From Bacteroidetes bacterium HGW-Bacteroidetes-4 (GTDB taxonomy: Bacteria; Bacteroidota; Bacteroidia; Bacteroidales; SZUA-534), in contig PHDD01000001.1 in NCBI GenBank assembly GCA_002840905.1, positions 248,001 through 312,000 on the forward strand: DNA of 64,000 nt. Direction: 5' to 3'. Under the pieces are notes generated by a model. That model was not told the DNA's origin. It did not search any database and saw nothing but the letters and a program-made list of their open reading frames with translations. The translations under genes were made by a program, and so were the position numbers. The stretch's first letter is position 1. Each line of letters opens with the position of its first letter. Below are positions 1,055-57,574 of the stretch, piece by piece.

Positions 1055-1090
1055 ATAAAAAAAGACCTAAGGAAAATTCCAAAGGTCTTT
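1055..1090 (-). terminator. Intrinsic terminator of first tRNA-Lys
   Basis: AAAGACCT (1061-1068) pairs with AGGTCTTT (1083-1090). On the minus strand the hairpin is followed by a run of T (the A-run at 1055-1063 of the plus strand). It begins at the encoded CCA of the tRNA-Lys at 1090-1165. Confidence 0.8.
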
Positions 1091-1165
1091 GGTGATTCAG
1101 CTGGGGCTCGAACCCAGGACCCCATCCTTAAAAGGGATGTGCTCTACCTGCTGAGCTACTGAATC
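1090..1165 (-). tRNA. tRNA-Lys (anticodon TTT), copy 1
   Basis: The minus strand folds as a standard cloverleaf of 73 bases (1165 down to 1093) plus an encoded CCA (1090-1092). The acceptor stem GATTCAG/CTGAATC is fully paired, the D arm contains AGCTCAGCAGGTAGAGCA, the anticodon stem-loop CATCC-CTTTTAA-GGATG gives anticodon TTT, and the T arm contains GGTTCGAGCC. It is one of two intact tandem copies about 50 bases apart. Confidence 0.97.
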
Positions 1166-1183
1166 ATTATATAGAGAACTTCA

Positions 1184-1212
1184 TAAAAAAAGTGAAACAT
1201 AAAATGTTTCAC
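1184..1212 (-). terminator. Intrinsic terminator of second tRNA-Lys
   Basis: GTGAAACAT (1192-1200) pairs with ATGTTTCAC (1204-1212) around a 3-base loop. On the minus strand it is followed by a T-run (A-run 1185-1191 on plus). It separates the two tRNA-Lys genes, so each appears to have its own 3' end. Confidence 0.75.
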
Positions 1213-1213
1213 C

Positions 1214-1289
1214 TGGTGATCCAGCTGGGGCTCGAACCCAGGACCCCATCCTTAAAAGGGATGTGCTCTACCAGCTGAGCTACTGAATC
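1214..1289 (-). tRNA. tRNA-Lys (anticodon TTT), copy 2
   Basis: This has the same cloverleaf as copy 1, with an encoded CCA at 1214-1216 and anticodon TTT. It differs at two places: the D loop/stem side has AGCTGG in place of AGCAGG, and the acceptor 3' strand is CTGGATC, giving one U-G wobble pair. Both still fold correctly, so both copies should be functional. Confidence 0.97.
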
Positions 1290-36402: not shown

Positions 36403-36435
36403 TTTGTCCTTGAAAAAGATTTTGGTTTACCTTTG
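36403..36435 (+). promoter_or_regulatory. Promoter of the cobalamin riboswitch transcript
   Basis: TTTG (36403-36406), 21 bases, TACCTTTG (36428-36435) is a perfect match to TTTG/TAnnTTTG. The start point, about 36442, falls exactly where the riboswitch begins. Confidence 0.75.
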
Positions 36436-36442
36436 CCTTACA

Positions 36443-36632
36443 ATGGTTTCCAACAGGAGTTTTCTCCTTAGGATGAAAAGGGAATGCCGTGAGAATCGGC
36501 AACAGTACCCGCTGCTGTATGCTCTAATAACTTTTTGCCAACACCTTTGCCACTGTCGGTTTAATACCTGCGGGAAGGCCTGGTAAAAAGGGAGTAAGTC
36601 AGAAGACCTGCCATAAGTATTAAGAACCTAAG
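36443..36632 (+). promoter_or_regulatory. Cobalamin (AdoCbl) riboswitch
   Basis: The conserved elements occur in order: AAAAGGGAATGCCGTGAGAA near 36475-36494, ATCGGCAACAGTACCCGCTGCTG after it, the B12 box GCCACTG (36549-36555), GGGAAGGC (36572-36579), and AGTCAGAAGACCTGCC (about 36597-36612). Together they are diagnostic of the class. It lies 117 bases before the start of a T9SS DUF4465 protein. No strong terminator is visible between it and the ATG, so control is probably at translation; that is inference. Confidence 0.95.
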
Positions 36633-36748
36633 CTTTCGGGAGTAAAAGCAAGTGGTGCTGTAAGTCGATTATTTTCTCCTTCAGTACTTCAAAAAAAATC
36701 CCATGAGTTAAGGTTGGTTTAATTATTAATCAATTTATCAACTTTAGT

Positions 36749-37942
36749 ATGAAAAAGAATTACATTTTAATGCTGGCTTTTAGCTGGCTGGTGAGTTTAA
36801 ACGGATTGCAGGCGCAACTGGTGGCGGGTTTCGACGATTTAAGTCTTGAAGCTGAGAGTTATTGGAACGGCAGCGATGGAACCGGATACTTTGTGAGTGG
36901 CCCTATAACTTTTTTAAACAGTTATAACATTGATTGGAATGCCTGGAATGGTTTTTCGTATTCCAATATTACCGACAACAATACAGTTGGCTTCAGCAAC
37001 CAGTACAGTGCTATTGCCGGAAGTGGAGCGAAGGGTTCCGCTAATTATGCCATAAGTTATTTATTTGGTAACTCAAAAATCACTTTTGGCAAAACCACCA
37101 GCCTTTATGGATTGTATGTAACCAATGCCACCTACACGGCCGGAACCATAAAAGATGGCGATGACTATTCGAAAAAGTTTGGCGGCGAAACCGGCAATGA
37201 CCCCGACTGGTTTAAACTGACAGTTAAGGGATGGAGCAATGATGAAACGCTGAAGGGTAGTGTGGACTATTACCTGGCCGATTACCGTTTTAGCGACAAT
37301 TCGGCTGATTACATTGTAAACGATTGGCAGTGGGTCGATTTGCGTGAGCTGCAAGAAGTAGATTACCTGACCTTTGAGCTCTCGTCGAGCGATAATGGCG
37401 ATTGGGGAATGAATACCCCGGCTTTCTTTTGCATCGATAATGTTACCCTGAACGATTATACCGACATTACTTTTGTAGCTACTCATGGCGATGAAAAGCT
37501 GGCCGATGTAAGCATTGAATTTGCCGGCAGCACCCTTACCACTGACATAAATGGCGAGGTGGTATTTGAGCAGGTCTCACCCTCGACCCAAATGGTTTTT
37601 ACGGCATCGAAACCCGGATTTGTGGATTATTCTGATGTAATAAATGGCTTTGAAACCACACGGGTTGAGCTCAGCCTGACCGTGGGAGTGGATGAACAAC
37701 CGACTGAAAATGCAGTTATGGTTTATCCAACCCTGGTAAACAACATGTTGTATGTTAAAAGCAAGTCAGCGCTGAGTTCAGGGGTAATTTACAATTTGTC
37801 GGGACAAGTGCAGCAAACTTTCGAAAGCAGGGGTTCCTTCGAAATGCAGGTACCGGTGCAGGCATTAACTCCCGGAATATACTTTATCAGTGTGTCTACT
37901 GAATCAGGTGAAATAGAAAAACAACGATTTATAAAATACTAA
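36749..37942 (+). CDS. DUF4465 secreted T9SS protein under B12 riboswitch
   Basis: A 397-residue protein: signal peptide (about 1-22, ending LQAQ), a DUF4465 domain (about 25-235; AGFDDLSLEAESYWNGSDG through FFCIDNVTLND), a CarboxypepD_reg-like Ig domain (about 240-310) and a T9SS type A sorting tail (MVYPTLVNNMLYVKS...FISVSTESGEIEKQRFIKY). DUF4465 proteins recur in Bacteroidota cobamide-uptake loci, and I recall a link to the BtuH class of B12-binding surface proteins. With the riboswitch upstream, a role in capturing cobamides at the cell surface is the best inference. No TonB receptor or BtuG is adjacent, and it is not a lipoprotein. Confidence 0.82.
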   Translation: MKKNYILMLAFSWLVSLNGLQAQLVAGFDDLSLEAESYWNGSDGTGYFVSGPITFLNSYNIDWNAWNGFSYSNITDNNTVGFSNQYSAIAGSGAKGSANYAISYLFGNSKITFGKTTSLYGLYVTNATYTAGTIKDGDDYSKKFGGETGNDPDWFKLTVKGWSNDETLKGSVDYYLADYRFSDNSADYIVNDWQWVDLRELQEVDYLTFELSSSDNGDWGMNTPAFFCIDNVTLNDYTDITFVATHGDEKLADVSIEFAGSTLTTDINGEVVFEQVSPSTQMVFTASKPGFVDYSDVINGFETTRVELSLTVGVDEQPTENAVMVYPTLVNNMLYVKSKSALSSGVIYNLSGQVQQTFESRGSFEMQVPVQALTPGIYFISVSTESGEIEKQRFIKY

Positions 37943-37960
37943 AATATTCTGATGGTGACG

Positions 37961-37995
37961 AAAGGGGTTTTCCGGTATCGGAGGCCCCTTTTTTA
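37961..37995 (+). terminator. Terminator of DUF4465 gene
   Basis: AAAGGGG (37961-37967) and inner TTCCG pair with CGGA and CCCCTTT (37979-37991), followed by a T-run. It lies about 18 bases after the stop codon. Confidence 0.85.
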
Positions 37996-41425: not shown

Positions 41426-43594
41426 ATGAAAACACACGCCCTGCTGCTCTTTGTTTTGCTGCTTTATTTACAACCTTCGGTTAACGGCCAAATCAGTAAA
41501 AAAGGAACACCTTATTCGTGGCTTAATCCTCAGCTTATTGAACAACCTGAGCTTATACGTTTGCCTGGGGTTCAGGCCATACCCGCTACAATAATTGGGG
41601 ATAGCCGGTTAAAAAGCGGAAGCAATGTTTTTGCCTATCTTTTCCCAGTAAATAAAGGTCTTTTGAATGCCGGAGTGTGGACTGATTTACCCAATGGTGA
41701 CCGGGTTTGGCAATTGAGTCTGGAGTCGGATGGTGCGCTGGGATTTACCGTGAATTTTAGCCGTTTCCTGCTACCCGATGGTGCCAGTGTATTTATTTAT
41801 AATGCCGAAAAAACCCAGGTATTGGGAGCATTTACATCGGCAAATAATAAACCCTGGCAGGGGCTGGCTGTGCAACCTATTTCAGGGAATAGCATTACCA
41901 TTGAATATTATGAACCATCCGATGTTGATTTTGAAGGAGAACTGCATATTGCTCAGGTTGGGCACGATTTTGTGGGAGTTTCTCTTGAAAAAGACGGACG
42001 ATTCAATACTTCAGATACCTGCCAGGTAGATATTAATTGCGAGGCGGGAGCTGGATGGCAGCTATATAAACGGTCTGTATGCCGTATGGTAATCAATGGC
42101 AATGAATTGTGCTCGGGCGCATTAATAAACAATAGCCTGAACGATCAAACACCGTACGTATTAAGTGCCAATCACTGTGTTGACAGTAAACTCAGGGCGC
42201 AGAATACGGTGTTTGTTTTTAATTATGAAAGTCCGGCTTGTAATGGATCTGACGGTTCTGTTTCTCAATCCATTTCTGGAGCCAGTTTAATGGCCACCAA
42301 AAATCAGGATAAAGGCTATCTCGATTTTTCCTTATTGCGACTTTCGCAAGCAGTTCCATTATCGTACCAACCCTATTTTGCCGGTTGGGACAGCCGAAAT
42401 CTGACACCACAAAATGTAGCCTGTATTCATCATCCCTGGGGCGATGTAAAGAAAATAGCTGTTGATTTCGATGCTTCGGTAACAGGTTCTTTTGATGCCT
42501 GGTACGATCCAGATACCTTTTGGAAAGTACTTGAATGGGATTTGGGAACAACGGAAGGCGGCTCGTCAGGAAGTCCTTTATTTGATCAACACCAGCGCAT
42601 AGTGGGTTCGCTCACGGGCGGAGAAGCCACTTGCGCCAACCCGGTGAATGATTATTACCAAATGCTTGCTGTGGCTTTTGATAAATACCCTGCCGATACC
42701 AATCAACTAAAAAAGTGGCTGGTTCCCAATAATTCCGGTGTAACTTTTCTCGATGGATTTGATCCCCTGCAAGCAGTTAGCACGGTTACCGACAAAATTT
42801 CGGTGGTGCATTGGGAACAGGGACAGAATCTGGCTTTTTATTTGGCCAACGATGGTGGTTACCTGGCTGGAAATAATGTTTATGGAGATAAAGAGAAGGC
42901 CGAGTTTTTTAATAAACAGGAATTTTTGCCGTTGAATGTCATTAGTGGAGCCCGGATTGCCTTTGCATATGCATCGGGTAACGATAATGAATTGATAGAA
43001 CTAAAAGTAATCAGCGAAAGTTTTGGTTTTCCGGGTAATTATTTGGGTTCGACTTATGCATCGCTTGGCGAGATAAAAAATAAAGCTGATAAAGAATGGG
43101 TGTATTTCGGTTTCGAACCACCCATTGAGGTTATTGGCTCTGTTTTTCTTTCGGTAGTTCTCCCGCAAAATCCCGGCGATACGGTTGCCCTGATGACTGT
43201 GGAAAAAGCAAGTGTGAATACCGCCTGGGAATACAATGCCGATAACAAATGGTATCCGTATTCCAATCCAGATTTTTCGTGGGACATTAGTCTTGCGCAT
43301 CTCATTGCTATGGAAATTGGTCGTTTTACTTCAATTGACCATAACGTTAAATTCAAAAACGAACTGGTGGTATATCCCAATCCGGCTAATGAACAGGTAA
43401 CCATTGAAACACAACAGAAAGAAATAAAAAGTGTGGTTTTAATTGATGGCCTGGGACGTATAGTAAGTATTGGAAATTTCAGCCTTTATCATAACAGGGC
43501 TCAATTCGATGTTTCGCGTTTAAACAAAGGAATTTACATAGTGCTTGTTGGACTTGAAAATGAAAGGCTTTCTGCAAAGATTCTGGTAGAATAA
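41426..43594 (+). CDS. Secreted trypsin-like serine protease with T9SS tail
   Basis: A 722-residue exported protease resembling lysyl endopeptidases. The signal peptide is about 1-22 (MKTHALLLFVLLLYLQPSVN). A prodomain runs to about 200, and the S1 domain has His250 (LSANHCVD), Asp300 (LDFSLLRL) and Ser381 in EGGSSGSPL. The residue before Ser381 is Ser, where most family members have Asp. Four or more paired cysteines (C199, C205, C219, C229) fit the family. A beta-rich domain and a T9SS type A tail (VVYPNPANEQVTIET...YIVLVGLENERLSAKILVE) follow. It is exported and probably surface-anchored; substrate preference is unproven. Confidence 0.88.
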   Translation: MKTHALLLFVLLLYLQPSVNGQISKKGTPYSWLNPQLIEQPELIRLPGVQAIPATIIGDSRLKSGSNVFAYLFPVNKGLLNAGVWTDLPNGDRVWQLSLESDGALGFTVNFSRFLLPDGASVFIYNAEKTQVLGAFTSANNKPWQGLAVQPISGNSITIEYYEPSDVDFEGELHIAQVGHDFVGVSLEKDGRFNTSDTCQVDINCEAGAGWQLYKRSVCRMVINGNELCSGALINNSLNDQTPYVLSANHCVDSKLRAQNTVFVFNYESPACNGSDGSVSQSISGASLMATKNQDKGYLDFSLLRLSQAVPLSYQPYFAGWDSRNLTPQNVACIHHPWGDVKKIAVDFDASVTGSFDAWYDPDTFWKVLEWDLGTTEGGSSGSPLFDQHQRIVGSLTGGEATCANPVNDYYQMLAVAFDKYPADTNQLKKWLVPNNSGVTFLDGFDPLQAVSTVTDKISVVHWEQGQNLAFYLANDGGYLAGNNVYGDKEKAEFFNKQEFLPLNVISGARIAFAYASGNDNELIELKVISESFGFPGNYLGSTYASLGEIKNKADKEWVYFGFEPPIEVIGSVFLSVVLPQNPGDTVALMTVEKASVNTAWEYNADNKWYPYSNPDFSWDISLAHLIAMEIGRFTSIDHNVKFKNELVVYPNPANEQVTIETQQKEIKSVVLIDGLGRIVSIGNFSLYHNRAQFDVSRLNKGIYIVLVGLENERLSAKILVE

Positions 43595-49720: not shown

Positions 49721-49753
49721 TTTGCTTTATATTATTTGATTTTCGTAACTTTG
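49721..49753 (+). promoter_or_regulatory. Promoter of giant T9SS protein
   Basis: TTTG (49721-49724), 21 bases, TAACTTTG (49746-49753) is a full consensus match. The start near 49760 lies after the in-frame ATG 49736, which excludes that as the start codon and supports ATG 49853 with a leader of about 93 bases. Confidence 0.75.
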
Positions 49754-49852
49754 ATTTTGAAGAGTCCAAGACGAAAGTCTTATGTAACAAATTATGAAGT
49801 AACCCTGGTTTGCCTTAATTGCCCAATTAAGATAAACCCAAATAAGAGTATT

Positions 49853-52800
49853 ATGAAAAAGTCCTATCGAATGAAAAAATTCCAGGTTTTGATATACCTG
49901 GTTGTGGGTTTAGCACTAAACCTGAATGCACAATTGACAACCGGAATCTACACTGTGGGTGGCGTGTCGCCCAATTATGTCACTATTGCAGATGCAGTAA
50001 GCGATTTGAATACCCTAGGAATTGCTGGCGATGGCCCGGTAGTTTTTAGTATTGCTGACGGAAACTACAACGGTCAGCTTTTAATTGGTGAAATAGCCAA
50101 TTCCAGCGCAGTAAATACAGTTACTTTCGAGTCGGCCTCAGGCGATTCAAGTAAAGTAACTATTATGCATGCAACCACAGGCTCAACCAATAATTATGTG
50201 GTACAGCTTAATGGTTGCGATTATGTTAGTTTTAAAAAAGTTACCTTTTATAATTACGCTTCAATTTCATACACCCGAGTAGTCGAGTTAAATGGAACGG
50301 CTACCAACAACTCCTTTCAAAATTGTATGTTTATTGGCTATGCCGGGTCAAGCGCGTCAAATAATCAGGCGCTGCTTTTTAGCTATGATGATGTGGTTTC
50401 CGAATTGGTGGTAGAAAAATGCCTGTTTCAAGATGGAGGTTATGGTATTTATTTGAATGCTTCAGGTAAGCTTACAGAAAATATTGGTTTAAAAAACAAT
50501 ACGATAAATACCTTAAGAGGAATTTATTTAGCTTATGCCGATCGTTGTCTGGTTGAACAGAATACGATTAATGCCACCAATAGTGAGGCTCTTACCCTTC
50601 GCTATTGCGATTTTGATATTCAGGTTCTGGGAAACACCATTAACCTCGATTATTCGGGAACAGCCTATGGTATTTGGTTCGGAAACAACAATGGAAACTT
50701 AGTTGAAAAAGGACTGATTGCCAATAATGCCATTTATGTAAATGGAACTTCCGGTTACAACGCTTATGGTATTTATATCGAAGCATCAGTTTCACATCGT
50801 TTATATCACAATTCTATACACATTAGCAATTCGAAAAATACCGGGGCTCCGATATATGCTTATAGTGGTTCCAATATTGAATTACTAAATAATAATCTGG
50901 TAAACTCCGTATTGGGATACGCACTATATGCAGCCTCATCAAGTACGTATTCTATAGCCGATAATAACAATTACTATACTGCAGGAAATTTTTTGGCTTA
51001 TCTGGGAGTAGATATAGCCAATTTGACTGCACTTAAAGCAAAAGGTAAAGATGCTAATTCTACCGATTACTACCCAAGTTTTGTGTCTAACTCCGATTTA
51101 AGAGTGCTTACTCCCTGGTTAAACGGAACGGCAACATCAAGTATTTTAGCCACAGTACCTAACGATAAGGATGGTAATCCACGCGATGGTTCAAATCCCG
51201 ATGTGGGTGCATTTGAGTTTACACCGGCAAATACTTTAGCTTACTCAGGAACGTTAAGTATAGGAGCCGGAGGCGATTTTGGAAGTTTTAATGAAGCGGT
51301 TGATTCTTTGGAACTATTGGGTGTATCAGCACCTGTTGAAATAAATGTGGCCGATGGAAATTACATTGAGCGGGTAATTATAAACCGGATACCCGGTTCT
51401 GGGGCAAGCAATCGCATTACTTTTCAATCGGCCAGTGCCGATTCCACTAAAGCAACGTTAAATTACAGTACGGTTGATGCCAATGATAACGGAACAATTG
51501 TTTTAAAAGGAGCCGGATACCTGACCTTTAAACAACTTAAAATGATAAATTCCTCCACTTTATCGTATGGTAGGGTTGTTGATATGAAAGGTAGAACTGA
51601 ACAGGTTAATTTTGAGAACAATTTCTTTATTGGTGCGGGTACAAGCGCCGGTAACAGCGAAAGAGCAGTAATATTCAGTTCAGGATATCAGGCCAATGAT
51701 TTGTTGATTACAAAAAACGTTTTTACCGGAGGTAGCCGTCACATAGCCATTAAGGGAATTGATGCTACGGTTGATGTCCCGGTAAATAATATTAGCATTT
51801 CAGCTAATGTTTTCAATGTATCGGAACGGAATATTTTGTTGGAGTTTTGTAAAGATATTACCATTTCCGGAAACCAAATAAATGATTTTACCTATAACGG
51901 AATTTCAATTTATAATTGCGAGAATCCATTGATAATTGAAAAGAATAGAATCAATTCAACGTCCAGTTATTATCAATCGGTTCGGGTGGAATCGACTGTG
52001 GGGCCTGCTGGTGGAATCATAAAAAATAATTTTATTAGTCATAAATACAACAGTTCAATACAAGGATTGTACCTGCGTTATAATCAGTATATTAATGTGT
52101 ATCACAATTCCATCAACCTGATAGCTAATAATACAGGAAGTAGTGCATTATATCTGGATGGAAACAGCAATCTGAATATTAAAAACAACATTTTGGCCAA
52201 TAACGGGACCGGATATGCTATTTATGTATATGCGGCTCCAACCAATCTCGATTCAGACCATAATAATTTGTATACCACCGGTAATAACCTGGTTTATTGG
52301 ACAGGTACAAACTACAGTTTATTAAGCGATTATCAAACGGCATTGTCGCAAGATGCAAACAGTTTGAGTTTAAATCCCAATTATACTTCCGAAACCGATT
52401 TGCACATAAATTCATACTGGCTACAAAGTGCCGGAGAAAGTCTTGTCTCAGTTACCGACGATATGGATGGTGATTTACGACAAGCTCCTCCTTGTATTGG
52501 AGCCGACGAATACGTGTCGACGCTGAGTCCTTTGGCAGGAACCTTTGAAATTGGAGTTGGCGGCGATTACGAAACCATTAGCCAAGCTGTTACAGCCATC
52601 AGCGAAAATGGTATTTCGGGCAATGTAGTTTTCGAAGTATTATCGGGAATGTATAACGAACATTTTGTGATTCCCGAAATTTTTATTGTACACGAATCCG
52701 ATTCGGTAATAATACGTTCAAAAACTGGCGTTGCCAGCGATGTAATAATTACTTACGAAGCAACCATTGCCGACAATAACTACATTGCCAAACTGGAAGG

Positions 52801-55800
52801 TACCGACCGTTTTACATTTGAGAATTTAAGCTTTACAGCCGGTAACTCGGAGTATTCCCGCTGCATCAGCATGTACGGAAATTTAAACAATGTTAACATT
52901 AAGGGTTGTACCTTTAATGGACGTTCCAGTGCATCAACTTCGACCAACGATGCAATATTATTTGCTGCCGAAAACGATCCCTATTTTAATGGGTTATTGA
53001 TTGAAAATAATACCTTTAATAGCGGTTCTTGGGCCATTGATTTGGATGGTTCGGGTAGTAAAAAAATAGAACAATTGATTATTCGTAACAATCAAATCAA
53101 TTCAAATTATCGGGGTATTTATATAAGCGATGCAGTAGCTCCTGTTATCGACGAAAATATAATAACCTGTAATGCTGAAAATTCCTATGGTATTAAATTA
53201 AATGCTTGTGCAAGTGGCACCAACAAGCCGCTTAAAGTAGTTAACAATCAAATATATTCGAACTTCAAAACCTCAGAAGGAGGAATTTACCTGTATGTTA
53301 CTAATGGAACCGTAACAGAACCTGGCATTATAGCCAATAATGTAATACAAAATAGTACCAAAGGCGCTAACAGCAGTTATGGTATTCATATTTATAGTTC
53401 TAACAAACTTAACATATATTACAATAGCATAAACATTACCGGAAACAATACTTCTGATAAAGCTTTTTATGCAGAGTATGCCAGCGATTTGAATATTTAT
53501 AATAATAGTTTTGCAATACGGGGCGAGTTAGGAACCAAAGAAACCGGTTATGGTTACGCCATTGATATATCAAGCGGTACAAATATTATTGGTGATTACA
53601 ATAATTTTTATACTCCCGGAAGATTTATTGGTCGCTGGCAGGGAACTTCCTATGTGAATCTTTCCGATTTGCAAACCGCCAGTGGGCAATTTGCCAATTC
53701 GCTGGATGTATTTCCGGCCTATCAGGATACCAAAAACCTGAATACCTTATCGGCATTCTTAAATGCTTCAGCGCAACCATATTCAGGATTAAGTGCCGAC
53801 ATAAAAGGAATTGCGCGTGATGCAACCCATCCCGATATTGGAGCTTATGAGATACTTTCGCCGGCTACAGCTCTGGCTGCTGGAACCTATACGGTTGGAG
53901 CCGGAGGTGATATGCCAACCATTGATTCCATGTACCGGGCCTTGTTTGAACTGGGTATTGCCGGACCGGTTACTTTTGCACTAAAAAATGGTAGCTATAC
54001 TGGTGTTAATCTGTTTTTTAAAGGAATTCCGGGAACTTCGGCAAGCGATACCGTAGTTATACAATCGGAAGCCATGGATTCCTCGAAGGTGTCTTTTGGT
54101 TTTGTACAGACCACAGGTAATAATTACATTTTCTACCTGAATGGTACAAAATACCTTACCATTAAAAACCTTACTTTGAATTCTGGGGGTGTTGGTTATG
54201 GCTCACTTTTAGTTATGGATGGAAATGTTCAACACATTAATTTATTGAATAATAGGTTTAATGGATTGAATACCAATTCATCGAATAACGAGTTGTCAAG
54301 TATTTACATGCCCAGCGAAAACATAGTTGATTATTTGCTAATTAAGAACAACCTGTTCAATTACAATAGTTTTGGAATTAATCTGAATGGATATTCGAGC
54401 TATCAGAATGAACAAATAACGATAGAAGAAAATGAGTTTTTGAACCAATACAGTCAGATTTATTTATATCGTATTAATAATCCGGTTGTTCAGTATAACC
54501 TTCTTAAACAAGGACAAAGTAAAGCTATCAATTTGTATTATTGTACCAATGCGGTTAAAATTATAGGTAACCAGATTGCCACAAGTGCAACTAATATTAA
54601 AGGTATCGAATTAAATTCAACCGATGGTTCCGGTGTAACTCCCGGTTTAATTGCCAATAACTTTGTGCAGTGTAAAGGAATTTATGGTATATATCTTTAT
54701 TATTCCGATTATCATAATGTTTACCACAATTCTGTAAACCACACGGGTGATAATAATGGCTCGGCATTCTATGTATATTATGGTTCAAACATTAAACTAA
54801 AGAACAATATTTTTAATGCCACAAGTAACGGATATGCCTATTATTCATCGGGTTCAAGCAGTATTTTAGAATCAGATTACAATAATATTAATGCTACAGG
54901 AACCCGCTATGCTTATTATGGAGCAACTGCGAATAATTTAACTGAGTTAAAAGCTTTAAGCAGTATGGATGCCAATTCGTTTGAATTAGAGCCTGTTTTT
55001 TTAACTGAAAGCGATTTGCATTTAATCAGTTTCGATTTAATGGAAAAAGCAGTTTTGTTGCCTGAGATTAGCATGGATATTGATAAAGAACCTCGCGATG
55101 CTGTAAAACCCGATATTGGTGCCGATGAAATGTATGCCCGTCCGCCAGTTGCCGAGAGCAAAGTTATTTGCGAAGGGGAAGAAACTCCGGATTTAACGGC
55201 ATCGGGAATTAACATAAAATGGTATTCCGACGAGGTGCTGGAAAATCTGATTTGGACTTCGGGAACTTATTCACCCAATATTACCGCTCCCGGGGAATAT
55301 ATATATTATGTTACCCAAACCGTAGGTGACGACGAAAGTGAACCAACCCGGGTCAGCATAACCATTAATCCAACTCCCGATTTATCGGCAGTTGTAGTTA
55401 ATATTGATTGCCAGGGCAATAATTATGGTTCCATTAATCTTACAGTGAGTAGCGAAAACGCTCCTTTTTTCTTCCGTTGGTCAAACGAATCGACTACTGA
55501 AGATGTGAGCAAACTACTGGCTGGTAATTATACAGTTACCGTAAGCGATATCTTAGGATGTTCTTCTATCCAAAGTTATGAAGTAACATCACCAACACCC
55601 ATTCAATTAACCATGATTGCGAACGATGCCGATTGCGGCGATAACAATGGTTCGGCAACCGTATTTGCTGAAGGTGGAAATGAACCGTTCACTTACATGT
55701 GGACTACCGGAGATACAAAAACCACCATAGATAGTCTGGTTTCGGGAATTTATGTAGTTACTGTTACCGATCAGGATGGCTGTACAAAAACCGGTATTGC

Positions 55801-57574
55801 TACAGTAAACGATTTGGGTGGTTCAGTTATTACAGTCGATGCTATAAATAATGTTTCGTGTTATGGTGGTAACAATGGTTCCATTGCGATTAGTTTAGCT
55901 GGCGGAGTTACTCCATACAACATTTCATGGAGTAATGGCGCAACATCTGAAGATATTAACAAGCTGGAGGCCGGACCCTATGAAATAAATGTAACCGATG
56001 CCGATGGTTGTAGCTCCGTTAAAAGTATTCAGGTAAACCAACCCAGTCCAATTTTAATTGGATTAGGCGAGTTCGATGCTAATTGTGGTCAGGCCAATGG
56101 TAGTGCAACAACCAATGTAAGCGGGGGTGTGGCTCCTTACAGTTATAACTGGAGTACCGGTTCAACAGCAAGCGAAATTAGTAGTTTGGGTCTTGGTGTT
56201 TACGGAGTTACGGTAATCGATGCCAATGCCTGTCAGGCAAATAAATCGTTTGCCATTAGTGAGTCAGGCGCTCCGGTTGTTTATGTCGATTCGGTTATTG
56301 AAGGAACTTGCGGCAATTCCGATGGAGCCATCTACATAACTGCTTATGGAGGTTCCGGAACACAATTGGATTATTTATGGAATACCGGTTCAACTAGTGA
56401 AGATTTAGTTGGTGTAAATCCGGGTGCTTATTCTGTAACTGTAACAGATTCCGTAGGATGCTCCGGAGCAACTGTAGCTGAAATAGTTGCCGAAAAACCC
56501 GAAACACCTTCTATTTGTATTGTTACCGTTGATACAACCACCAACAATAACGAAATTATTTGGGAGAAACCTTTTGCAACCGATATCGATTATTATAATA
56601 TTTATCGCGAGAGCACCCAAAGTGGAGTTTATCAGAAAATTGGTGAGCGACAATACACTGAGGAAAGTTTGTTTGTCGATGTGAATTCCAACGCCAAACA
56701 ACGTTCGTACCGGTATAAAATATCTACAGTAAATACTTGTGGGGTGGAATCGGAATTAAGTGAATTGCATAAAACCATGCACTTGACCATTAATCTGGGA
56801 ACCAACGGAAATATTAACCTTATTTGGGATCACTACGAAGGGTTTAAAATCAATACCTATTACATTTACCGTTATACGCCGGAAACCGGATGGGTAAAAT
56901 ACGACAGTATTGCAAGCAATTTAACCTCGTATACCGATTTTGATGCACCGCTCGATAATTTACAATACATGATTGAAATTGTACATCCCTACGGCTGCTC
57001 AGCAACCAAAGCTGTTAACCGGAATACTTCCCGTTCAAACGTAGGATCAATCACCAATACAGGTGGAACAGGAATTGCAGCCTTGTTTAAAGTTACTTCA
57101 TCAGGTGTTGCTGTTGAAGGTGCTGAAGTTACCATTGCCGATGTAATGCAACAAACCAATGCCGACGGAGAAACCACTTTTAATAATTTAACCATGGATG
57201 CCGTTCTTGATTACAGCGTTACCAAAACCGGATTCGAGGATTTCTTTGGTTCGTTTACTGTGAATTCGACCTTTAGAACCGTTGATGTTGAATTAACTCC
57301 GGTGGGAATTATCGACGAAAAGGCAACTATGATTAAGCTTTATCCGAACCCGAATCATGGCTCGTTTAAGTTATCGCTTAAACTGGAACAAGCGAGGACT
57401 ATTCGATACCGGGTTTATGATGCCACATCAATGTTGTTGGTTAGCGAAGAATTCGAGAATCAATCGGGTGAAGTTTCGCATCAGATTCATTTGGAAACAG
57501 CAGAGAAAGGATTCTATATTGTGCAAATCAACATTGATCAAGAAGTTTACTATAAGCGAATTATAGTGAATTAA
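49853..57574 (+). CDS. Giant T9SS surface protein: beta-helix and SprB repeats
   Basis: A 2,573-residue secreted protein. The signal peptide ends at LNAQ (about 25). Four right-handed parallel beta-helix modules of about 420-450 residues follow (starts near 28, 464, 894 and 1342). Each opens with a TVGxGGD-like turn, carries Asn-rich NNxI/NTIN rungs, and closes with DIGA[YD]E-type residues. Next come an Ig-like segment (about 1765-1845), five SprB repeats (1845-2215; NCGQANGSATTNVSGG type), an FN3-like region, a CarboxypepD_reg-like domain (about 2405-2485) and a T9SS type A tail (IKLYPNPNHGSFKLS). The four modules suggest internal duplication. SprB-like repeats suggest adhesion or gliding. 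Confidence 0.9.
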   Translation: MKKSYRMKKFQVLIYLVVGLALNLNAQLTTGIYTVGGVSPNYVTIADAVSDLNTLGIAGDGPVVFSIADGNYNGQLLIGEIANSSAVNTVTFESASGDSSKVTIMHATTGSTNNYVVQLNGCDYVSFKKVTFYNYASISYTRVVELNGTATNNSFQNCMFIGYAGSSASNNQALLFSYDDVVSELVVEKCLFQDGGYGIYLNASGKLTENIGLKNNTINTLRGIYLAYADRCLVEQNTINATNSEALTLRYCDFDIQVLGNTINLDYSGTAYGIWFGNNNGNLVEKGLIANNAIYVNGTSGYNAYGIYIEASVSHRLYHNSIHISNSKNTGAPIYAYSGSNIELLNNNLVNSVLGYALYAASSSTYSIADNNNYYTAGNFLAYLGVDIANLTALKAKGKDANSTDYYPSFVSNSDLRVLTPWLNGTATSSILATVPNDKDGNPRDGSNPDVGAFEFTPANTLAYSGTLSIGAGGDFGSFNEAVDSLELLGVSAPVEINVADGNYIERVIINRIPGSGASNRITFQSASADSTKATLNYSTVDANDNGTIVLKGAGYLTFKQLKMINSSTLSYGRVVDMKGRTEQVNFENNFFIGAGTSAGNSERAVIFSSGYQANDLLITKNVFTGGSRHIAIKGIDATVDVPVNNISISANVFNVSERNILLEFCKDITISGNQINDFTYNGISIYNCENPLIIEKNRINSTSSYYQSVRVESTVGPAGGIIKNNFISHKYNSSIQGLYLRYNQYINVYHNSINLIANNTGSSALYLDGNSNLNIKNNILANNGTGYAIYVYAAPTNLDSDHNNLYTTGNNLVYWTGTNYSLLSDYQTALSQDANSLSLNPNYTSETDLHINSYWLQSAGESLVSVTDDMDGDLRQAPPCIGADEYVSTLSPLAGTFEIGVGGDYETISQAVTAISENGISGNVVFEVLSGMYNEHFVIPEIFIVHESDSVIIRSKTGVASDVIITYEATIADNNYIAKLEGTDRFTFENLSFTAGNSEYSRCISMYGNLNNVNIKGCTFNGRSSASTSTNDAILFAAENDPYFNGLLIENNTFNSGSWAIDLDGSGSKKIEQLIIRNNQINSNYRGIYISDAVAPVIDENIITCNAENSYGIKLNACASGTNKPLKVVNNQIYSNFKTSEGGIYLYVTNGTVTEPGIIANNVIQNSTKGANSSYGIHIYSSNKLNIYYNSINITGNNTSDKAFYAEYASDLNIYNNSFAIRGELGTKETGYGYAIDISSGTNIIGDYNNFYTPGRFIGRWQGTSYVNLSDLQTASGQFANSLDVFPAYQDTKNLNTLSAFLNASAQPYSGLSADIKGIARDATHPDIGAYEILSPATALAAGTYTVGAGGDMPTIDSMYRALFELGIAGPVTFALKNGSYTGVNLFFKGIPGTSASDTVVIQSEAMDSSKVSFGFVQTTGNNYIFYLNGTKYLTIKNLTLNSGGVGYGSLLVMDGNVQHINLLNNRFNGLNTNSSNNELSSIYMPSENIVDYLLIKNNLFNYNSFGINLNGYSSYQNEQITIEENEFLNQYSQIYLYRINNPVVQYNLLKQGQSKAINLYYCTNAVKIIGNQIATSATNIKGIELNSTDGSGVTPGLIANNFVQCKGIYGIYLYYSDYHNVYHNSVNHTGDNNGSAFYVYYGSNIKLKNNIFNATSNGYAYYSSGSSSILESDYNNINATGTRYAYYGATANNLTELKALSSMDANSFELEPVFLTESDLHLISFDLMEKAVLLPEISMDIDKEPRDAVKPDIGADEMYARPPVAESKVICEGEETPDLTASGINIKWYSDEVLENLIWTSGTYSPNITAPGEYIYYVTQTVGDDESEPTRVSITINPTPDLSAVVVNIDCQGNNYGSINLTVSSENAPFFFRWSNESTTEDVSKLLAGNYTVTVSDILGCSSIQSYEVTSPTPIQLTMIANDADCGDNNGSATVFAEGGNEPFTYMWTTGDTKTTIDSLVSGIYVVTVTDQDGCTKTGIATVNDLGGSVITVDAINNVSCYGGNNGSIAISLAGGVTPYNISWSNGATSEDINKLEAGPYEINVTDADGCSSVKSIQVNQPSPILIGLGEFDANCGQANGSATTNVSGGVAPYSYNWSTGSTASEISSLGLGVYGVTVIDANACQANKSFAISESGAPVVYVDSVIEGTCGNSDGAIYITAYGGSGTQLDYLWNTGSTSEDLVGVNPGAYSVTVTDSVGCSGATVAEIVAEKPETPSICIVTVDTTTNNNEIIWEKPFATDIDYYNIYRESTQSGVYQKIGERQYTEESLFVDVNSNAKQRSYRYKISTVNTCGVESELSELHKTMHLTINLGTNGNINLIWDHYEGFKINTYYIYRYTPETGWVKYDSIASNLTSYTDFDAPLDNLQYMIEIVHPYGCSATKAVNRNTSRSNVGSITNTGGTGIAALFKVTSSGVAVEGAEVTIADVMQQTNADGETTFNNLTMDAVLDYSVTKTGFEDFFGSFTVNSTFRTVDVELTPVGIIDEKATMIKLYPNPNHGSFKLSLKLEQARTIRYRVYDATSMLLVSEEFENQSGEVSHQIHLETAEKGFYIVQINIDQEVYYKRIIVN

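What the first reader, a model, noticed from the sequence alone, without database searches (positions are those of the whole stretch)
36403..37995. Cobalamin riboswitch controlling a lone T9SS DUF4465 protein
Promoter, riboswitch, DUF4465 gene and terminator form a complete one-gene unit. Most B12 riboswitches in Bacteroidota control transporter loci or isoenzymes; here the only target is a secreted, T9SS-anchored protein with no TonB receptor. This suggests a surface cobamide-binding protein working with a transporter encoded elsewhere, with T9SS anchoring in place of the usual lipoprotein form.
Basis: partly seen in the sequence, partly recalled or inferred. Interest (0 to 1): 0.72.

Follow-up and report, generated by a model that had tools for sequence, protein, structure and literature searches.

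The report
B12 riboswitch controlling surface B12-binding protein
A vitamin B12-sensing RNA switch controls a single gene whose protein is very probably exported to the cell surface to catch B12 for an uptake system encoded elsewhere in the same genome; it is a good new example of a protein family described in 2025-2026, not a new kind of system.

Summary
The functional interpretation also holds, but is less novel than thought. DUF4465 proteins (BtuJ) are experimentally shown B12 binders, and 229 of 824 family members were already reported to carry a T9SS tail. The nearest characterised protein is BtuJ1, not BtuH. The 'transporter elsewhere' was found: this genome's only other cobalamin riboswitch heads a BtuH-BtuB-BtuG operon whose BtuH is also T9SS-tailed. 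Both units recur in two same-genus genomes. Among 80 related loci, 53 have a riboswitch directly upstream plus a T9SS tail; at least 14 of these lack BtuB/BtuG nearby. One point departs from the literature: the 'critical' HI-loop tyrosine (BtuJ1 Tyr245, called universal) is Phe226 here. Phe recurs on the tree (seven changes), including in btuB/btuG loci, so it is probably tolerated. Verdict: new member of a known kind, well supported; B12 binding, surface location and B12-dependent expression of this unit are inferred, not measured.

The parts
36403..36435 (+). Bacteroidetes-type promoter: TTTG 36403-36406, TACCTTTG 36428-36435
   Evidence: read from sequence; TAnnTTTG kept in both same-genus orthologues
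36427..36629 (+). cobalamin riboswitch aptamer; loop L5 CCCG at 36508-36511
   Evidence: Rfam RF00174, 92.8 bits, E 9.4e-22, full length
36632..36649 (+). P13 hairpin GCTTTCGGGAGTAAAAGC; loop CGGG complementary to L5 CCCG (putative kissing loop)
   Evidence: CGGG and CCCG invariant in nine leaders; CGGG-loop hairpin in 39 of 54 leaders versus 2.6% of shuffles
36652..36690 (+). putative second leader hairpin (GTGGTGCTG / CAGTACTTC); corresponding stretches GGAGTAACC / GGTTATTTC in relatives can also pair
   Evidence: read from alignment; not tested statistically
36697..36748 (+). region able to pair with the 3' strand of aptamer stem P1 (possible anti-aptamer element); exact limits unsure
   Evidence: duplex energy z -2.36 in the window, mean -1.74 over 46 leaders that are not independent
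36749..37942 (+). gene for a T9SS-tailed DUF4465 (BtuJ-like) protein, 397 aa
36749..36814 (+). Sec signal peptide without lipobox (aa 1-22, ..LQA-Q)
   Evidence: read from translation; helix 5-17 in model; no signal-peptide predictor was run
36932..37444 (+). DUF4465 B12-binding jelly roll (Pfam aa 62-232; fold match aa 20-237)
   Evidence: PF14717 185 bits; Z 27.8 to 9HMU, 27.1 to 9QPM, 26.8 to 9FCT
37412..37429 (+). HI loop NTPAFF (aa 222-227) with Phe226 (codon 37424-37426) at the place of BtuJ1 Tyr245
37721..37939 (+). T9SS type A sorting domain (aa 325-397), seven strands in the model
   Evidence: PF18962, TIGR04183, Z 11.1 to T9SS-bound RemA CTD
37960..37992 (+). terminator-like hairpin, 13 pairs, T-rich tail

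Best explanation
This is a one-gene, B12-repressed scavenging unit. When intracellular cobamide is low the riboswitch allows expression; the protein is exported through the Sec system and the T9SS and held on the outer face of the cell (or released), where its DUF4465 jelly roll captures cobamides and hands them to BtuG/BtuB. BtuB, BtuG and a T9SS-tailed BtuH are made from the genome's only other cobalamin-riboswitch operon, so the two units form one regulon. Shown here: riboswitch, gene structure, sequence and fold relationship to B12-bound BtuJ1 and D5EK51, sorting domain, SprA in the genome, and the two-riboswitch layout with its conservation in two same-genus genomes. Inferred: B12 binding by this protein with Phe226, surface location, hand-over to BtuB/BtuG, and repression by B12.
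For: Rfam match; DUF4465 and T9SS tail; PDB matches to BtuJ1 2.4e-35 and D5EK51 5.3e-24; model superposes at Z 27-28, rmsd 1.8-1.9 A on B12-bound DUF4465 structures; pocket residues Trp63, Tyr129, Asn222, Thr223 kept; eight diverse DUF4465 proteins bind B12 (PMC13398666), BtuJ1/J2 bind tightly and rise without B12 (PMC12751083); the second riboswitch operon encodes BtuH, BtuB, BtuG; same two units in G002 and G004; BtuFCD-like ABC locus; B12-binding domains present, only one TP_methylase; SprA present.
Against: The HI-loop tyrosine called critical is Phe226, and BtuJ1 Tyr97 is Phe82. There is no direct evidence of binding, display or B12 response in this organism. The expression platform is only partly understood: no intrinsic terminator was found between aptamer and start codon.
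Confidence: 0.88

Rival explanations
1. The protein has changed or lost B12 binding (Phe226, Phe82) and now binds another ligand or only a subset of cobamides, while the riboswitch is retained.
For: Phe at a tyrosine described as universal or 97% conserved, which bonds the corrin c side chain.
Against: Phe occurs in 8 of 113 aligned relatives with seven changes on the tree, and five of these genes lie in loci with BtuB or BtuB and BtuG (L068, L083, L090, L105, L121). The other pocket residues are kept, and the riboswitch would make little sense without a B12 role.
Confidence: 0.08
2. The T9SS tail leads to release into the medium or onto vesicles rather than anchoring, so the protein works as a diffusible cobamide catcher.
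For: T9SS cargo can be released or anchored (general knowledge; abstract of PMC10202324); BtuJ proteins of B. theta act on extracellular vesicles (PMC12751083). The sequence does not tell the two fates apart.
Against: Type A sorting domains are generally linked to surface attachment (general knowledge). This is a variant of the main explanation rather than its opposite.
Confidence: 0.25
3. The riboswitch is a decayed or chance neighbour and does not control this gene.
For: Only that no expression data exist for this organism.
Against: The same pairing is found in same-genus G002 and G004 and in 60 of 80 related loci; the aptamer core and P13 are intact.
Confidence: 0.01

Closest known systems
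BtuJ1 (BT_1491) and BtuJ2 (BT_1957) of Bacteroides thetaiotaomicron, DUF4465 / IPR027828
   Same: Same domain and fold, most pocket residues, cobalamin riboswitch control, role in B12 capture
   Different: BtuJ1/J2 are lipoproteins inside transporter operons; this one has a T9SS tail, stands alone, and has Phe in place of Tyr245
D5EK51 of Coraliomargarita akajimensis (9HMU) and the other DUF4465 proteins of PMC13398666
   Same: B12-binding DUF4465 domain; best structural match, Z 27.8
   Different: D5EK51 keeps the HI-loop Tyr; its anchoring and regulation were not compared here
T9SS-tailed IPR027828 members counted in PMC12751083 (229 of 824)
   Same: DUF4465 plus T9SS sorting domain
   Different: Reported as a domain count only; regulation and partners of such members are not described there
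BtuH2 of B. thetaiotaomicron (7BIZ)
   Same: Works alike: accessory surface B12-binding protein under riboswitch control
   Different: Another family; it did not come up as a match to this protein, whereas the genome's own BtuH-like protein P0002 in the other riboswitch operon matches it

Membership tests
Cobalamin riboswitch (RF00174) | match to the Rfam covariance model above the gathering score | tested here: met
   92.8 bits against 31.5, full length
Cobalamin riboswitch (RF00174) | L5-L13 kissing loop complementarity | tested here: met
   CCCG 36508-36511 and CGGG in the loop of the hairpin 36632-36649, invariant in nine leaders. Pairing itself not probed
Cobalamin riboswitch (RF00174) | gene expression repressed by cobamides | not testable with these tools
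   needs a reporter assay
DUF4465 / BtuJ cobamide-binding proteins (PF14717) | DUF4465 sequence match over the cut-off | tested here: met
   185 bits against 25
DUF4465 / BtuJ cobamide-binding proteins (PF14717) | augmented beta-jellyroll fold with DE-loop helix | tested here: met
   helix 128-136 and Z 22-28 to all six DUF4465 entries listed
DUF4465 / BtuJ cobamide-binding proteins (PF14717) | corrin-contacting residues Trp78, Tyr97, Tyr146, Asn241, Thr242 (BtuJ1 numbers) | tested here: met
   Trp63, Phe82 (conservative change), Tyr129, Asn222, Thr223
DUF4465 / BtuJ cobamide-binding proteins (PF14717) | HI-loop tyrosine (Tyr245), called universal in PMC12751083 and 97% in PMC13398666 | tested here: not met
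   Phe226; Phe also in 8 of 113 relatives, some in btuB/btuG loci, so it is not a strict defining feature of the family
DUF4465 / BtuJ cobamide-binding proteins (PF14717) | measured cobamide binding | not testable with these tools
   needs purified protein
T9SS type A cargo | C-terminal sorting domain (TIGR04183 / PF18962) | tested here: met
   33.5 bits against 23; 31.9 against 27; Z 11.1 to RemA CTD
T9SS type A cargo | Sec signal peptide, no lipobox | tested here: met
   read from the translation; no predictor was run
T9SS type A cargo | T9SS machinery in the same genome | tested here: met
   SprA_N, E 2.2e-171; other components not searched
BtuH | sequence match to BtuH2 (7BIZ) | tested here: inconclusive
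   7biz is not among the matches of this protein, while the genome's P0002 does match it; absence from a list is not proof

The most novel reading that the evidence does not exclude
A clade of stand-alone riboswitch-BtuJ units, found in the window's genus, a Paludibacter and a Porphyromonas cangingivalis genome, acts as a T9SS-displayed or diffusible cobamide catcher apart from the transporter operon, and the recurrent Tyr-to-Phe change in the HI loop tunes which cobamides are caught or how easily they are passed on to BtuG/BtuB.
Probability: 0.15. Interest if true: 0.55.

Novelty: new member of a known kind. Interest (0 to 1): 0.33.

Why it matters
It joins the known B12-binding DUF4465 family to T9SS export under riboswitch control, and shows the uptake regulon split into two units in which both BtuJ and BtuH carry T9SS tails instead of lipid anchors. 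It also offers a natural test of the supposedly critical HI-loop tyrosine.

Tried and rejected
Chance pairing of riboswitch and gene: rejected by conservation. Further DUF4465 copies in the genome: none found. Loss of the pocket: not supported. Plasmid-borne relatives: only three distant matches. Sigma-70-type promoter scan: no more sites than in shuffles, and not suited to this group. Minimum-free-energy folding of the whole leader does not reproduce the aptamer, as can be expected for a pseudoknotted riboswitch. Genes downstream of DUF4465 in two Prolixibacteraceae loci (an unknown 200-aa ORF and chorismate synthase) give no B12 link. The one paper holding both 'cobalamin riboswitch' and 'type IX secretion' describes a riboswitch before a TonB-dependent transporter, not this arrangement. 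The region aa 238-276 has only a sub-threshold CarboxypepD_reg match and was not modelled alone.

Full report
Observation. The unit is as described. The window holds one cobalamin aptamer, 36427-36629 +, 92.8 bits against a threshold of 31.5 and full length. A TTTG / TACCTTTG pair (36403-36406 and 36428-36435) fits the Bacteroidetes promoter pattern, and the TAnnTTTG element is kept in both same-genus orthologues. The gene at 36749-37942 encodes 397 aa with DUF4465 (185 bits) and a type A T9SS sorting domain. A 13-pair hairpin with a T-rich tail follows at 37960-37992. Both neighbours, mnmA and a hybrid histidine kinase, are on the other strand, so the gene stands alone.

What the protein is. 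It matches the B12-bound structures BtuJ1 (9FCT, E 2.4e-35) and D5EK51 (9HMU, E 5.3e-24) by sequence. An AlphaFold2 model (mean pLDDT 77; about 90 through most of the DUF4465 core, low around aa 280-320) superposes on them at Z 27-28 with rmsd 1.8-1.9 A, and its C-terminus on the T9SS-bound RemA sorting domain at Z 11.1 (Foldseek agrees). B12 binding has been shown for eight diverse DUF4465 proteins (PMC13398666); BtuJ1 and BtuJ2 bind very tightly and rise when B12 is absent (PMC12751083).

The pocket. Against BtuJ1, Trp78, Tyr146, Asn241 and Thr242 are kept (Trp63, Tyr129, Asn222, Thr223), while Tyr97 is Phe82 and Tyr245 is Phe226. Tyr245 bonds the c side chain of the corrin and is described as universal or 97% conserved. 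In my alignment Phe occurs in 8 of 113 rows (one of them the window's own copy), with seven changes on the tree. Five of the Phe genes lie in loci with BtuB or with BtuB and BtuG (L068, L083, L090, L105, L121). The likeliest reading is that Phe is tolerated, since many contacts are by shape and main chain; only a binding assay can settle it.

The partner transporter. The genome has one DUF4465 gene and two cobalamin riboswitches. The second, on contig C13, is followed by P0002 (BtuH-like, 7BIZ E 3.3e-39, T9SS tail by TIGR04183 above cut-off and PF18962 just below), P0003 (BtuB, 8BMX_C E 6.3e-79) and P0004 (BtuG, 8BMX_D E 7e-108, lipobox LLNAC), then a thioredoxin-like gene and a nucleoside-gate protein whose membership of the operon was not tested. 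A BtuF-, BtuC- and BtuD-like ABC locus lies on the window's contig, outside the window, with no riboswitch found. B12-binding domains are present (four above cut-off) but only one TP_methylase, so the organism probably uses but does not make cobamides. SprA is present. So the 'transporter elsewhere' is real and very probably co-regulated.

Conservation. In the same genus, G002 and G004 carry both units; G003, 65% complete, shows only the BtuH-BtuB-BtuG one. In the order, 120 of 295 sampled genomes have DUF4465. Of 80 related loci, 60 have a riboswitch directly upstream, 71 a T9SS-like tail, and 53 both. Of the 60, 26 have BtuB or BtuG nearby; 18 lack them with at least 3 kb of flank on both sides, 14 of these with a T9SS tail. 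Seventeen of the 20 loci without a riboswitch directly upstream do have BtuB or BtuG nearby. This sample is the set closest to the query and was drawn by an HI-loop pattern allowing Tyr or Phe, so proportions are not those of the whole family; its riboswitches were scored with a profile built from Rfam matches and its tails with a home-made profile. The window's nearest clade (SH-aLRT 93) joins its genus with a Paludibacter and a Porphyromonas cangingivalis gene; those two and the G002 copy also stand alone.

How the switch may work. The hairpin just after the aptamer (36632-36649) has the loop CGGG, complementary to CCCG in loop L5; both are invariant in nine leaders. A CGGG-loop hairpin follows the aptamer in 39 of 54 leaders against 2.6% of shuffles. 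Further down, a stretch can pair with the 3' strand of P1 (window z -2.4; mean -1.7 over 46 leaders, many of them related), which suggests competition between P1 and an alternative stem. Whether control is on transcription or translation is not decided here.

Verdict. Known kind, well supported, ordinary in outline. The T9SS-tailed form was already counted in the literature (229 of 824, PMC12751083). What I did not find in the papers searched is the split two-riboswitch regulon with both accessory binders T9SS-tailed, and the recurrent Phe at the 'universal' tyrosine. That is a limited search: subscription papers and preprints are not held.

Noticed in passing
L007:2555-7100 (G000 contig C13, outside the window): BtuH-like protein with a T9SS sorting domain at the head of the btuB-btuG operon; Bacteroides BtuH proteins are lipoproteins. 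Its called start overlaps the riboswitch, so Met25 is the likelier start.
   Followed up: partly
L144:119-460 (G004 contig C250): Cobalamin riboswitch matched in two pieces about 150 bases apart by nhmmer (119-218 and 370-460) and at low score by Rfam; possibly a large insert in the aptamer.
   Followed up: no
L070, L101, L107, L108: DUF4465 genes in records labelled Phycisphaerae, Planctomycetota or Sedimentisphaerales, without T9SS tail, three of the four with a cobalamin riboswitch upstream.
   Followed up: no
window 41426-43594: Trypsin-like peptidase with a T9SS sorting domain.
   Followed up: no
window 49736-57574: 2612-aa protein with beta-helix regions, SprB repeats and a T9SS sorting domain.
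   Followed up: no
window 1090-1289, - strand: Two nearly identical tandem tRNA-Lys(TTT) genes.
   Followed up: no
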